DNA of 39,857 nucleotides from a virus. The stretch is from positions 1 through 39,857 of IMG/VR virus record IMGVR_UViG_3300044533_000281. One strand, written 5' to 3'. The translations under genes and the position numbers were made by a program. Positions 22,587-39,857 of this stretch are shown here, one piece after another; position 1 is the stretch's first letter; the number at the start of each line of letters is the position of its first letter. The notes under the pieces were generated by a model. That model saw nothing but the letters and a program-made list of their open reading frames with translations, was not told the origin of the DNA and did not search any database.

Positions 22587-23378
22587 ATGGAACAAATACC
22601 AATGGACATCATAGAAGCAAAACTACGGGATAGATACGAGACCCAAGGGTTCTCGCAAGCCTTATTCCGAAACGACTGGAATCTTATGATTCGTATGGGA
22701 GTCCACCCTCAGGTGGCTACTGTAGAGGACTTGCAAAGAACCATTATGGCAGTCAAAGCAGCCTCAACTAAAGGCACATATGCTGCTCGCTTACGCAGTA
22801 TGTTCAAGGCTTTGAACAAGATGAAGGTAATAGACAACAGGGTCATTGAGGACCTGCCTAATGTCCGTAAGGGCAGAGGTCTGCCTCATCCCATTACCCC
22901 GTCTGAAGCCAAGATGCTTATGACTGAAGCCAGAGAGCCTATGCGTGACTGGTTCATAATAGGCTGCTGTGCGGGCCTGCGGGCTATGGAAGTGGCTAAC
23001 CTGCGAGGGGTAGACTTAGAGAAGCAAGAGGACGGATACGTCCTTAGAATCGCTGGTAAAGGCGGTACAGACCTATCTGTGCCTGTGGCTAAGATAGTCG
23101 CAGATACCATTCTGAAGTACAACACTAGTCAAAGGTTATGGGAAGTAACTCCTAACCGCCTGACTAAGAAGACCTCGTTAGAGATGAAGCGACTAGGCAT
23201 ACCAAAGAAAACCTTCCACGCCTGTCGCCATTACTTTGCCACTACAATGCTTGAGAAGTCTGGTGGAGATTTACTAGCAGTAAGAGATTTAATGCGCCAC
23301 TCAAGTGTGGCTACAACACAGGTATACACTCAGTTGGCTAGTGGTAGAACTAGAACCCTAGTTAACTTATTGAACTAG
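22587..23378 (+). CDS. int: tyrosine recombinase / integrase
   Basis: 263 residues. An N-terminal SAM-like core-binding domain (about 1-95) is followed by the catalytic domain with the full set of active-site residues: Arg132 (AGLRAMEV), Lys158 (AGKGGTDL), His211 and Arg214 (HACRHYF), His238 (LMRHSS) and nucleophile Tyr247 (TQVYTQL). It lacks the extra arm-binding domain of lambda integrase, so it resembles simple XerC/D-like enzymes. It lies in the tail module with the same direction as the late genes, far from the early genes. An integrase implies lysogeny, but no immunity repressor or attP is recognised; dimer resolution is another possible role. Confidence 0.9.
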   Translation: MEQIPMDIIEAKLRDRYETQGFSQALFRNDWNLMIRMGVHPQVATVEDLQRTIMAVKAASTKGTYAARLRSMFKALNKMKVIDNRVIEDLPNVRKGRGLPHPITPSEAKMLMTEAREPMRDWFIIGCCAGLRAMEVANLRGVDLEKQEDGYVLRIAGKGGTDLSVPVAKIVADTILKYNTSQRLWEVTPNRLTKKTSLEMKRLGIPKKTFHACRHYFATTMLEKSGGDLLAVRDLMRHSSVATTQVYTQLASGRTRTLVNLLN

Positions 23379-28374: not shown

Positions 28375-28593
28375 TTAATCTCCTTCTGGTGTAGGTAATG
28401 TGACCATACTGCCACATCCTGCACACTCTGCATCTGTAAAGTAGAAGGCTATCTCTCCATCTACAAATCCACCTAACATAACAAAGACATCACAGCCACA
28501 TACACATACTTCTGTCGGCTCACCACGCAAGTCCATTGACTTGGTGTAATCAATCCGTTTAAGTAAGTCTCGTATGTCTTTACTCTGACTCAT
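28375..28593 (-). CDS. small zinc-ribbon protein
   Basis: 72 residues from ATG 28593, which overlaps the end of the sigma-like gene. Cysteines at CVCGC (about 30-34) and CAGC (about 57-60) can form a zinc ribbon. Start codon is favoured over the longer frame because of the overlap pattern seen all along this operon. Function unknown. Confidence 0.6.
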   Translation of the reverse strand: MSQSKDIRDLLKRIDYTKSMDLRGEPTEVCVCGCDVFVMLGGFVDGEIAFYFTDAECAGCGSMVTLPTPEGD

Positions 28594-29233
28594 CGTCCTG
28601 CTCTGCCTGTGATACATCTTCATCTGTGTATGGCCTCCAGCCACCTAGGTTTCTGATGAGAGAGTTGATAGCACGCTGTACTTTCATACGGGCACCATCT
28701 GGTGTTGTCTTTAGGTCCTTGGCTATCAGGCTCCATTCCGCAGAGTCCGTGCTGAACCTAATTCGTAGAACATTTTGTTTAGCCTCTGTTAGTTTGAAGA
28801 AAGCGTTGGCTATATCTGACCTTAAAACTAGCCAGTTGTTACCATCACTGCTGCCTTCTGACTTACTAAATTTATAGTTTAAATCTTTAATCTTGCTTGG
28901 TATCTCATATGACTCAGCAATAATGCTAGGTAGGAAAGCCTCAATAACTGTTGCGTCATAGTAATATAAGTCAAGCAACTCGTAGCCCACCGTGCGGGCT
29001 TTCTCCCGCTCACAATACTTTATGGCTGCATTGCGGAGAGATTTTGCTATTAACTTCTCACGGTCTTTTATATCTAGTGCTGACCACTCAGTCATTTTTA
29101 CTGGATGGGTAACGAACCAAAGCCAGAGCACCTGCTGTATGTCAGGTGTCTCCACCATAGGGTACTTCCTATGGTATTCAACTGATAACGATGCTACTAG
29201 GTAGTCGTATTCAGTTATGAACTCTTGGCTCAC
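28580..29233 (-). CDS. sigma-factor-like transcription regulator
   Basis: 217 residues, GTG start with GGAAGGATTGA upstream. The N-terminal half has a basic helix (about 62-84, AKSLRNAAIKYCEREKARTV) in the position of a region 2-like domain, and the C-terminal part (about 140-198) reads FFKLTEAKQNVLRIRF then LIAKDLKTTPDGARMKVQRA, a sigma-70 region 4 helix-turn-helix. Such proteins would recruit host RNA polymerase to phage promoters. It may act together with the WhiB protein, which binds region 4 of the host sigma. Overlaps both neighbours. Confidence 0.65.
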   Translation of the reverse strand: MSQEFITEYDYLVASLSVEYHRKYPMVETPDIQQVLWLWFVTHPVKMTEWSALDIKDREKLIAKSLRNAAIKYCEREKARTVGYELLDLYYYDATVIEAFLPSIIAESYEIPSKIKDLNYKFSKSEGSSDGNNWLVLRSDIANAFFKLTEAKQNVLRIRFSTDSAEWSLIAKDLKTTPDGARMKVQRAINSLIRNLGGWRPYTDEDVSQAEQDDESE

Positions 29234-37199: not shown

Positions 37200-37508
37200 T
37201 TAATTTACAGATACAACTTCAATCTGTGTATAAGGTGCACGACGTTCAGCATTATCAATACCTGGTCGGCGGTCAAAGCGTGTCACTAACTTACCAGTTA
37301 GATTAACAACTTCTGATACTCCATCATACCAATTAAGATTACCCAATACAATCTTGGCCTCACTTGTAGTGAACACCAATGGCATAGTAAATGTGCACTT
37401 GCCATCAGCATCACGCTGAGTTAGATTTGCAGTGATAACCTTATAGTTACCTGAGCCACGCTCCTGAACATTCTTTATATATCCAGACGCATTAACTGTG
37501 TTATTCAT
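37200..37508 (-). CDS. SSB-like OB-fold protein
   Basis: 102 residues from ATG 37508 (site AAGGAGACAGAA); a longer frame to 37601 would run through the hairpin and is rejected. Strands such as VNASGYIKNVQERGSGNYKV and PLVFTTSEAKIVL form a small OB-like barrel, with a second barrel-type strand pair later (VNLTGKLVTRF). Likely single-stranded-DNA binding. A second OB-fold gene lies at 38268. Confidence 0.6.
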   Translation of the reverse strand: MNNTVNASGYIKNVQERGSGNYKVITANLTQRDADGKCTFTMPLVFTTSEAKIVLGNLNWYDGVSEVVNLTGKLVTRFDRRPGIDNAERRAPYTQIEVVSVN

Positions 37509-37512
37509 TTCT

Positions 37513-37570
37513 GTCTCCTTTTTATTTATATTGGAGCGGTGTCCCGCCTCGCCCGTCGGGCGGGCACCGC
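37513..37570 (-). promoter_or_regulatory. hairpin leader of the SSB-like gene
   Basis: GCGGTG-CCCGCC and GGCGGG-CACCGC (arms 37536-37548 and 37559-37570, one bulged base) form a 12-bp stem. TATAAATAAAAAGGAGACAGAA follows on the minus strand up to the ATG. Confidence 0.6.
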
Positions 37571-37582
37571 GTCTAAACAATC

Positions 37583-38020
37583 TCATTTGCACTCTTGGCA
37601 TCCAGTTCTTTTTGGATATACAAGATTACAAGTTGGGCAAACCATCTCATAGAAATTGATTACCGACCTAGCCTCATCTTCATCTAAGTCAAACAAATGC
37701 TGACCTAGAAAGTATGTGCTAGGACATCTATCGGCTAGGTTATAAGTGCCAGGAGAAAATTCTTCTCTGACTCTACCGTCAGCCATACGGGTATGAATAC
37801 CAATCCAATCAGAAGCGACTGGTACTACGCTCAAGTCGGTAATGACATCGCCTTCTGCAAGGCGCTCATCAGCCCTATGACTCCAGGCTAGGTCATCTAC
37901 CTTAGCCTCATTGGACTCGTCACAAACTCTGCATTTAACATCATAATCTGCGATGCTCATACAGTCATAGCACTCAGTCATAACTGAGATGCCATTGGAT
38001 ACAACAATTACTTCAGTCAT
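37583..38020 (-). CDS. multi-zinc-ribbon protein
   Basis: 145 residues. Cysteine pairs at CYDC (about 17-20), CRVC (about 30-33), CPTC (about 128-131) and CQEC (about 141-144) make two zinc ribbons at the two ends of an acidic body. Such ends often bind nucleic acids or RNA polymerase. ATG 38020 has AAGGAGACTATA upstream; the start overlaps the small ORF at 38013. Confidence 0.7.
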   Translation of the reverse strand: MTEVIVVSNGISVMTECYDCMSIADYDVKCRVCDESNEAKVDDLAWSHRADERLAEGDVITDLSVVPVASDWIGIHTRMADGRVREEFSPGTYNLADRCPSTYFLGQHLFDLDEDEARSVINFYEMVCPTCNLVYPKRTGCQECK

Positions 38021-38267: not shown

Positions 38268-38621
38268 CTAGAGCGATGAGTCCTCTGCGGGCTCTACGAT
38301 TTCATCTACAGATTCCAATCTGAAGATGGTGCTCCAAGCGTCGCCACGCTTGTCAGTCTTGAACCAGCCAGACACGCTAGCAACTGGGCGCTCTGGCTTG
38401 CCGCTTTCGCCAGTGAGTTCAGCGGAGTGCTCCTGCTGCTCAAGCGCACGGAGCGCTCCAACAGCCTTGCTGAAGCAAACAAACGGCAGCGACGATTGAA
38501 AACCGCCGTTCTCATTGCGGAGAATTAATACGCCTGATGCGTATTGATTGCCGTTCTTAGCGGTCTTGATAGCCAAACCTGCTAGTTCGGCGTCTGCGAA
38601 GGAAACGGTGTGCTTTGACAT
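38268..38621 (-). CDS. SSB-like OB-fold protein
   Basis: 117 residues. The run IKTAKNGNQYASGVLILRN (about 18-36) then SLPFVCFSKAVGAL and VASVSGWFKTDKRGDAWSTI fit the small OB barrel of a single-strand DNA binding protein, with an acidic C-terminal tail (VEPAEDSSL) typical of SSB partner docking. First minus-strand gene next to the structured noncoding region; start ATG 38621 has GCAGGTAGAAA upstream. Higher GC than its neighbours. Confidence 0.65.
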   Translation of the reverse strand: MSKHTVSFADAELAGLAIKTAKNGNQYASGVLILRNENGGFQSSLPFVCFSKAVGALRALEQQEHSAELTGESGKPERPVASVSGWFKTDKRGDAWSTIFRLESVDEIVEPAEDSSL

Positions 38622-38644
38622 TTTCTACCTGCTTTCTCTGTGGA

Positions 38645-39191
38645 GTTTGCTGCCGCTCTTGTGAGCGGCTGGAGCGTTTTTAGCAGGGTGCGGGTTCCCT
38701 TCCGTCATAAAACACGCCCGCTTGCGGGGCGTGGTGTTGACGGAAAGGGTGCCCCTGCTATGCTCCGTATAGCCGCTCACGGCAGCATACCCACAGGAAA
38801 CAGGTGCTCTAGAAATGTCAGCACCGTTTCTGTAGCGCCGAACCAAGGTTTGCTAGACCGCTGGCAATCTGCATCAGACGGTCTCCGCAATGGCGGTTTG
38901 TCGCTGCTTGCTTCAGCGCTGTTGCTCCGTTGAGCAGCAACTCCGCTACTGGCTGGCAAGCCACCAGTTGCTGTCTGGCAGGTAGACTGACGGCGACGAT
39001 TACCATCAAGGATGGAAGCGGAAATCGTCCGCAGTCATCGCTGGCAAAGGCTGGTTATTGCCAGCAATCAGACTATCGTAACTGTATAGCCCGCGCCCCT
39101 ATAAGCGGGCTGGAGATAGTCTGCCCAGACAGCGCTCTACAGACAGCACTGTCCACGCTATCAGCAAACAGGATGGGGTCTAAATGACCCC
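38645..39191 (-). ncRNA. candidate large structured noncoding RNA or origin
   Basis: About 550 bp without a convincing gene, made of consecutive and nested inverted repeats. A 146-nt hairpin (38645-38790) has arms 38661-38670/38771-38780 (10 bp), 38671-38675/38762-38766 and 38700-38707/38738-38745. Others: 38803-38808/38820-38825, 38855-38860/38879-38884, 38994-39000/39023-39029 with CCATC-AAG-GATGG inside, 39040-39046/39059-39065, 39069-39077/39115-39123 (9 bp) with 39088-39094/39105-39111 inside, and 39175-39180/39186-39191. The first 60 bases from 38641 hold 36 G/C against 24 in a sample from the ejection gene. Strand is unsure; minus would make it the leader of the OB-fold gene. Confidence 0.6.
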
Positions 39192-39373
39192 AGACTGTTT
39201 AATTCTGGCTGAAAGTTATATAGTACACTACCAAAAAGATTTTCCCGTACAAGTAAATAGCCTATGCCCCTGTCCTATTATGTCCTATTTTGTATATATG
39301 TTTTCTGTGAGTTACCTCACACTTTGCAAGCAAAGCGTTCGTTTAGGCTGTTTGAACGGATTAATACTATATA
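39192..39373. promoter_or_regulatory. AT-rich divergent control region
   Basis: No gene. GTGAG-TTAC-CTCAC (about 39308-39321) is an operator-like inverted repeat; TGTCCTATT is repeated in tandem near 39272-39291; TATATA on both strands (near 39220 and 39295) and TAATACTATATAGGGG (39362-39377) are promoter-like. It lies between the early minus and late plus operons, where divergent promoters must be. No -35/-10 pair is strong enough to call. Confidence 0.4.
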
Positions 39374-39471
39374 GGGGCGCAAAGCGCCCACTGATAGTAG
39401 CAAGGTCTTTCGGACCTTGCGTACAGAACTGTATTACAGTCTGTTTCTAACTGTCTGTACTAACTATCAGT
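39374..39471 (+). ncRNA. three-way-junction-like element upstream of terL
   Basis: GGGCGC-AAA-GCGCCC (39375-39389), then ACTGATAGT (39390-39398) pairs with ACTATCAGT (39463-39471), enclosing a GCAAGGTC/GACCTTGC hairpin (39400-39420, 8 bp, five-base loop) and an ACAG-ACTGT/ACAGT-CTGT hairpin (39423-39444). It ends 24 bases before GTG 39496, so it may be the leader of the late operon or a terminator shared with the early side. Confidence 0.5.
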
Positions 39472-39495
39472 ATAGTATGTAGATGGGACAGGTCT

Positions 39496-39857
39496 GTGAC
39501 TTTTCAGAAGGGAAATAACAACCCTAGGACAGAGGCTATGGCAGCCGCAAAGGCTAAAGTAATAGCCCTTGTCTCTGAGGGTTGGACACCGCATAAGGCA
39601 ATGGCTGAGGTTGGCAAGCAACCTGACACCATCCGCATTTGGTGTATGAGAGACCCTAAGTTTGCTACAGCCTTGGCCCAAGCCAAGGAGGACGCTAAAG
39701 AGCGTTCCTTGACCGCCCTAGGTATTGCTAGGGATGAAATTAGTTTTCCACAGTTCAGTGAGATGTTTTTAGACCAAAAAGTCTTTAAGCACCACCAGGA
39801 CTGGATTGATTTATTAGAGGGCCAGGAGCCTAGTTGGCTCCACGAGTCTATGATTTA
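39496..39857 (+). CDS. terL: terminase large subunit, N-terminal part (3'-truncated by window end)
   Basis: An open frame from GTG 39496 (or ATG 39538) runs off the window and is in frame with the terminase at the left end. The first 60 residues are absent from that left copy. Residues such as VIALVSEGWTPHKAMAEVG followed by PDTIRIWCMRDPKF read like a small helix-turn-helix domain of the type used by small terminases and transposases to recognise DNA. GTG 39496 has a purine-rich GGGACAGG about 5 bp upstream; ATG 39538 has a weaker site. Either gives a protein of roughly 615-630 residues. The domain may give TerL its own DNA recognition, since no separate small terminase gene is recognisable next to it. 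Confidence 0.85.
   Translation, partial: MTFQKGNNNPRTEAMAAAKAKVIALVSEGWTPHKAMAEVGKQPDTIRIWCMRDPKFATALAQAKEDAKERSLTALGIARDEISFPQFSEMFLDQKVFKHHQDWIDLLEGQEPSWLHESMI
39671..39857. repeat. terminal direct repeat, right copy
   Basis: Right copy of the 187-bp end overlap, differing from bases 1-187 at 39738, 39757 and 39758. It lies within the 5' part of the terminase gene that begins at about 39496, so that gene is split across the ends of the window. Confidence 0.95.

What the first reader, a model, noticed from the sequence alone, without database searches (positions are those of the whole stretch)
38645..39191. About 550-bp GC-rich region of nested inverted repeats: candidate large structured RNA
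Perfect or near-perfect inverted repeats follow one another over most of the region, several nested, while no frame encodes a plausible protein. Large ornate RNAs (GOLLD, ROOL, HEARO) are known from phages and aquatic metagenomes, and this has similar size and density of helices. I cannot match it to any of them by eye, so it may be new. A replication origin with many cruciforms is the main alternative.
Basis: partly seen in the sequence, partly recalled or inferred. Interest (0 to 1): 0.88.

Follow-up and report, generated by a model that had tools for sequence, protein, structure and literature searches.

The report
Giant hairpin spanning phage SSB-gene start
In a group of uncultured viruses that probably infect actinobacteria, about 330 bases can fold into one huge hairpin that engulfs the start of a DNA-binding-protein gene, and the two halves of the hairpin have changed together through evolution, which points to an undescribed control element rather than to a known large RNA.

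Summary
Most of the signal is ONE imperfect hairpin of about 330 nt (38541-38869, z -13). Its left arm starts outside the reported interval, inside a leftward gene (38268-38621), and contains that gene's ribosome-binding site, start codon and first 27 codons. The gene encodes an SSB-type OB-fold protein (AlphaFold plus Foldseek). The middle of the reported region (38816-39016) is unremarkable. Homologues from public viral contigs show strong compensatory change: 27 of 62 apical pairs, 0 of 500 shuffles. Each coding arm fits its own non-coding arm best in 11 of 13 phages. Start-site pairing occurs only in the three lineages whose first gene is this SSB. No Rfam family matches, so it is not GOLLD, ROOL or HEARO. 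G-U outnumber A-C mismatches 81:34 on the + strand, favouring a + strand RNA or ssDNA. Best guess: a hairpin controlling ssb expression. Strand, transcription and function are unproven.

The parts
38541..38719 (+). Left (5') arm of the giant hairpin; includes codons 1-27 of the minus-strand SSB-type gene
   Evidence: MFE fold of 38540-38900; arm alignment with 116 Watson-Crick positions of 127 ungapped
38720..38726 (+). Apical loop of the giant hairpin
   Evidence: fold; sequence
38727..38869 (+). Right (3', non-coding) arm of the giant hairpin, complementary to the left arm
38627..38805 (+). Apical domain (domain I), the part with the best covariation statistics; model R1
   Evidence: 27 of 62 pairs with changes on both sides, 0/500 shuffles; R1 finds it in 10 contigs at 124-207 bits
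38805..38809 (+). Bulge GCTCT in the non-coding arm opposite the ribosome-binding site; same bulge in the distant cluster-4 phages
   Evidence: arm alignments (window and L169)
38268..38621 (-). 117-aa SSB-type OB-fold protein, first gene of the leftward early operon
   Evidence: AlphaFold model pLDDT 82.7; 93 PDB matches at E<=0.001, best ones listed all SSBs or relatives; no Pfam or PHROG match
38619..38636 (-). Start codon (38619-38621) and ribosome-binding-site region (38627-38636, GAAAGCAGGT on the minus strand), buried in the hairpin stem
   Evidence: sequence; pairing z -4.3 (-) and -3.9 (+) against shuffles
39016..39205 (.). Right module: smaller hairpins, including 39166-39200; sequence-related in cluster 4 phages
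   Evidence: z -6.3/-6.2; 26 strand-shared pairs, few covarying
39216..39251 (-). Conserved promoter-like element, minus strand TGTACGGGAAAATCTTT-N-TAC; candidate early leftward promoter
   Evidence: conserved in nearly all 21 clusters; function inferred
39272..39289 (.). Direct repeat GTCCTATTAT/GTCCTATTTT, candidate regulator site
39346..39376 (+). Conserved promoter-like element GGCTGTTTGAACGGATTAATACTATATAG; candidate late rightward promoter
   Evidence: near-invariant across clusters; function inferred

Best explanation
The core of the region is a cis-acting regulatory hairpin attached to an SSB gene at the head of the phage's leftward early operon. About 120 base pairs bring together the ribosome-binding site, start codon and first 27 codons of ssb with a non-coding arm in the intergenic spacer. 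Shown by computation: the hairpin exists, its arms co-evolve, and it is tied to this gene rather than to the position. Inferred: RNA carrying this stretch folds into the hairpin and hides or antagonises the ssb translation start, so that SSB is made only from transcripts lacking the non-coding arm, after cleavage, or when a ligand (SSB itself is the obvious candidate) opens it. Wobble polarity suggests that the + strand (rightward, antisense to ssb) is the folded strand under selection, which would make it an antisense-type hairpin RNA over the ssb start. A simple minus-strand mRNA leader is the second form of the same idea.
For: One hairpin 38541-38869, -197.6 kcal/mol, z -13.2. Apical domain: 93.3% of cells paired, 27/62 pairs changed on both sides, 0/500 shuffles, sliding the partners halves the pairing. 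Coding arms that differ between phages are mirrored by the non-coding arm: 127 WC-to-WC replacements against 18 WC-GU, 5 WC-AC and 16 other, over 11 overlapping comparisons. Each coding arm scores best with its own non-coding arm in 11 of 13 phages, e.g. L095 85 against at most 46 with any foreign arm. Start-site pairing z -1.5 to -10 in clusters 2, 4 and 18 (SSB gene first) and near background in clusters whose first gene is another. Polarity: 81 G-U against 34 A-C with transitions scored equally, L095 12:2. The protein is an SSB-type OB fold; SSB autogenous translational control is known for T4 gp32 (PMC535899).
Against: No transcript, promoter or terminator is proven on either strand. Shuffle-normalised folding is equal on both strands, whereas RNase P, tmRNA and 16S RNA fold better on the true strand by about 0.4-2.4 z. 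The polarity counts are not independent, and cluster 4 shows little bias. The + strand would need a promoter inside ssb; only a weak match (TTGAAA-18-GAGAAT) was seen, explicable by coding conservation. A -180 kcal/mol hairpin over a start site would silence ssb outright unless something opens it. The right module prefers the minus strand in the consensus fold.
Confidence: 0.48

Rival explanations
1. DNA-level element: the repeat works as a hairpin or cruciform in DNA, for instance a replication origin or ssDNA priming site between the early and late operons, or as part of a packaging site.
For: Normalised folding equally strong on both strands. The spacer lies between the divergent arms, near the GC-skew turning point, beside an SSB gene. 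ACAG/CTGT enriched about 3-4-fold in 39040-39495 and direct repeats GTCCTAT resemble protein-binding arrays. G-T wobble is also tolerated in ssDNA, so polarity does not separate RNA from ssDNA.
Against: Asymmetric bulges such as GCTCT kept between distant phages are not what a dsDNA palindrome needs. Start-site pairing follows the ssb gene, not the position. A dsDNA cruciform predicts no G-U/A-C polarity.
Confidence: 0.22
2. A free-standing structured ncRNA on the + strand with its own function (GOLLD/ROOL-like in habit), overlapping ssb only because of genome compactness.
For: Wobble polarity +; strong covariation; related phages have a strongly folded non-coding spacer at this place, z -3 to -18. 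GOLLD also has a conserved 3' and a variable 5' part (PMC12286853).
Against: No Rfam match, no tRNA nearby, middle of the region unremarkable, start-site pairing specific to ssb, no conserved + promoter to the left.
Confidence: 0.15
3. A mutational product: inverted duplication of the ssb start followed by template-switch (quasipalindrome) correction keeps the arms complementary without selection.
For: Inverted near-copy of the gene start; arm homogenisation would also give own-arm matching.
Against: Bulge positions conserved between clusters 2 and 4, which homogenisation would erase; wobble polarity; persistence in three lineages with SSB proteins only about 55-63% identical.
Confidence: 0.1

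Closest known systems
Autogenous translational control of phage SSB (T4 gp32, gene 32 mRNA; PMC535899)
   Same: Phage SSB gene with a cis element at its translation start; a nucleic-acid-binding product that could read its own mRNA
   Different: gp32 uses an operator in its mRNA leader (from my own knowledge, a pseudoknot followed by an unstructured stretch); here a 330-nt hairpin includes 27 codons, and polarity favours the opposite strand. Autoregulation is untested here
Start-site-sequestering leader hairpins that silence read-through transcripts (as in insertion sequences such as IS10; from my own knowledge)
   Same: Ribosome-binding site and AUG locked by an upstream complementary arm
   Different: Far longer arms (about 120 bp), deep into the coding sequence, in a phage SSB gene
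GOLLD and ROOL RNAs (PMC12286853)
   Same: Large structured elements of phages; GOLLD has a conserved 3' and a variable 5' part
   Different: No covariance-model match; a single hairpin rather than a multi-branched cage-forming RNA; no tRNA island
CBASS-activating phage RNA (cabRNA, PMC10686824)
   Same: Structured phage RNA linked to the terminase region
   Different: cabRNA is transcribed from the terminase genes; this hairpin lies upstream, over ssb. Only a loose parallel

Membership tests
GOLLD / ROOL / HEARO (Rfam) | Match to the family covariance model | tested here: not met
   0 matches at gathering score in the window and 18 relatives; nothing meaningful up to E=5 in 38500-39500
GOLLD / ROOL | Often near tRNA islands | tested here: not met
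   No tRNA in the window
GOLLD / ROOL | Expressed, abundant RNA | not testable with these tools
   No transcript data
Structured functional nucleic acid | Compensatory base-pair changes among homologues | tested here: met
Structured RNA on a defined strand | G-U preferred over A-C; true strand folds better than its complement | tested here: inconclusive
   81:34 for + in the hairpin, but normalised folding equal on both strands; the strand-neutral pair test has no power on RNase P or tmRNA
Autogenous SSB regulation (T4 gp32 type) | Gene product is an SSB | tested here: met
   OB-fold model, best listed PDB matches are SSBs or relatives; weak by sequence (no Pfam hit)
Autogenous SSB regulation (T4 gp32 type) | Pseudoknot operator bound by the protein | not tested
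   Pseudoknots were not modelled; binding needs an experiment
Start-site-sequestering hairpin | Ribosome-binding site and start codon inside a strong helix | tested here: met
Replication origin | Initiator-binding repeats, AT-rich unwinding region and demonstrated firing | tested here: inconclusive
   Short direct repeats and ACAG/CTGT enrichment only

The most novel reading that the evidence does not exclude
A previously undescribed class of element: a rightward RNA (or ssDNA) hairpin of about 330 nt, antisense to the ssb start, whose left arm doubles as coding sequence of the gene on the other strand and whose right arm tracks changes in those codons. One stretch would then carry protein code on one strand and a co-evolving giant hairpin on the other.
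Probability: 0.3. Interest if true: 0.8.

Novelty: new variant of a known kind. Interest (0 to 1): 0.6.

Why it matters
If confirmed, it would be a phage SSB gene whose first 27 codons are locked in compensatory co-evolution with a non-coding arm, a clear case of overlapping protein and secondary-structure constraints. It would also give a tractable system for asking how phages of uncultured actinobacteria time the production of a replication protein. Methodologically, it shows that a 'large ornate RNA' call from a single sequence can be a gene-anchored hairpin.

Tried and rejected
(1) Rfam at gathering score and E<=5: nothing. (2) Phage records by blastn with the region: none. (3) Exact motif scan GCGRGGCGTGGYGTTGAC in viral contigs: only the same cluster plus four chance coding hits. 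(4) Strand-neutral G-U against A-C tests across the family gave about 1:1 (167:171; 81:88). I first took this as evidence against RNA, but RNase P and tmRNA gave about 1:1 as well, so the test has no power and the inference was dropped. (5) Compensatory counts against random re-pairing looked strong but were inflated by local rate variation; replaced. (6) Self-BLAST inverted-repeat counting missed the long stem. (7) Terminal hairpin 39166-39200 as a family-wide terminator: rejected, since the palindrome is lost in several clusters while the sequence GACCCCAGACT stays. (8) Host through GTDB: no close terminase relative; only 41-50% relatives in four Streptomyces genomes and one metagenome-assembled bin labelled beta proteobacterium. 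(9) Model R1 in other clusters: no matches outside cluster 2.

Full report
WHAT THE WINDOW IS. The window is a 39.9-kb viral contig whose two ends share 187 bp at 98% identity. Late genes run rightward from a large terminase subunit that is split between 39496-end and the window start; early genes run leftward. WhiB-like and sigma-like proteins and Streptomyces-phage terminase relatives point to an actinobacterial host; the host itself is inferred.

OBSERVATION. The region folds far better than shuffles on both strands. Extending the fold leftward showed that the main feature is a single hairpin, 38541-38869, at -197.6 kcal/mol on the + strand (z -13.2) and -181.9 on the minus strand (z -13.6) for the stretch 38540-38900. 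In 200-bp pieces only the left and right thirds of the reported region stand out; the middle is ordinary.

HOMOLOGUES. Searching public viral contigs with the terminase and with the 117-aa protein gave 83 distinct upstream regions in 21 sequence clusters. In a first set of 42 representatives the spacer folded strongly, z -2.9 to -18.4, from 12 shuffles each. Sequences diverge quickly, while a block of about 300 bp next to the terminase is conserved and contains two promoter-like elements in opposite directions.

COVARIATION. In the window's cluster (10 sequences) the apical 177 nt have 62 consensus pairs; 27 show changes on both sides, 93.3% of cells pair, and no shuffle of 500 reaches any of the five measures; sliding the partners by 1-3 columns drops pairing to 41-48%. 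The covariance model built from it finds only this cluster. Arm-to-arm alignment then showed that the repeat continues through the ribosome-binding site and start codon into about 80 nt of the leftward gene, and that equally long hairpins exist at the same gene in cluster 4 and in the distant L095. Where coding arms differ between phages, the non-coding arm usually carries the compensating base; the arms were aligned per sequence there, which favours pairing somewhat. Cross-pairing is the cleanest test: each coding arm matches its own non-coding arm best in 11 of 13 cases, the other two preferring a close relative, and L095 scores 85 with its own arm against at most 46 with any other.

LINK TO THE GENE. 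The start site of the first leftward gene pairs with the spacer only where that gene is the 117-aa protein (clusters 2, 4, 18). With other first genes the pairing is at or near background. The gene was chosen by a simple rule there, so single rows may be wrong. The protein has no Pfam or PHROG match, but its AlphaFold model (pLDDT 82.7) has the strand and helix order of an OB fold and its best PDB matches are bacterial and mitochondrial SSBs.

STRAND. This is the main open point. In the hairpin, with transitions scored equally, + strand G-U exceed A-C 81 to 34 over 17 sequences; most of the excess comes from the window's cluster and L095, little from cluster 4. In the apical domain it is 13 pairs to 3. 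This favours the + strand, as RNA or ssDNA. Against that, shuffle-normalised folding shows no strand preference, while known RNAs do; the right module folds better on the minus strand; and a family-wide pair test is uninformative because RNase P and tmRNA fail it too. The conserved block at 39216-39251 reads as a minus-strand promoter that would place the spacer in the early mRNA leader; this is inference.

MECHANISM. A structure that swallows the ssb ribosome-binding site and co-evolves with its codons is most simply a control element of ssb. Either the early mRNA leader hides its own start, or a rightward RNA over the same stretch does so as an antisense hairpin; the polarity leans to the second. 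Phage SSBs can regulate their own translation (T4 gp32, PMC535899), so SSB is a natural ligand, but nothing here tests that.

COMPARISON AND VERDICT. It is not a GOLLD, ROOL or HEARO member. It resembles known start-site-sequestering leaders in layout, but differs in arm length, in depth into the coding sequence and possibly in strand. I rate it a new variant of a known kind, with a 0.3 chance of something stranger.

Noticed in passing
39346-39420: Near-invariant GGCTGTTTGAACGGATTAATACTATATAG followed by short covarying hairpins (GGGGCGCAAAGCGCCC, AAGGTCTTTCGGACCTT): looks like the late promoter and the 5' end of the late transcript.
   Followed up: partly
39216-39251: Conserved minus-strand block TGTACGGGAAAATCTTT-N-TAC in nearly all relatives; candidate promoter, possibly for the phage's own sigma-like factor (28580-29233, PHROG 354).
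   Followed up: partly
39040-39495: ACAG/CTGT tetramers enriched about 3-4-fold over the rest of the window; possible binding-site array.
   Followed up: partly
L045, L168, L175, L184, L232 (upstream of terminase): In several AT-rich relatives a short hairpin with a conserved ARATA-type loop (e.g. GTTATAG-AAAGTAT-CTATAAC) sits directly before the ribosome-binding site of the first leftward gene, with stem changes on both sides.
   Followed up: no
37200-37601: A second small early protein (133 aa) that looks like an OB-fold or SSB relative by eye.
   Followed up: no
1-187 and 39671-39857: Imperfect 187-bp end overlap (98%), splitting the terminase gene; differences suggest strain mixture or assembly error.
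   Followed up: partly
22587-23378: Tyrosine recombinase (Phage_integrase, Pfam) amid the late genes, suggesting a temperate phage.
   Followed up: no
L123 1-658 (Streptomyces phage Kumquat): The annotated relative also has 658 bp without annotated genes before its terminase, with weak excess folding (z -3.7).
   Followed up: partly
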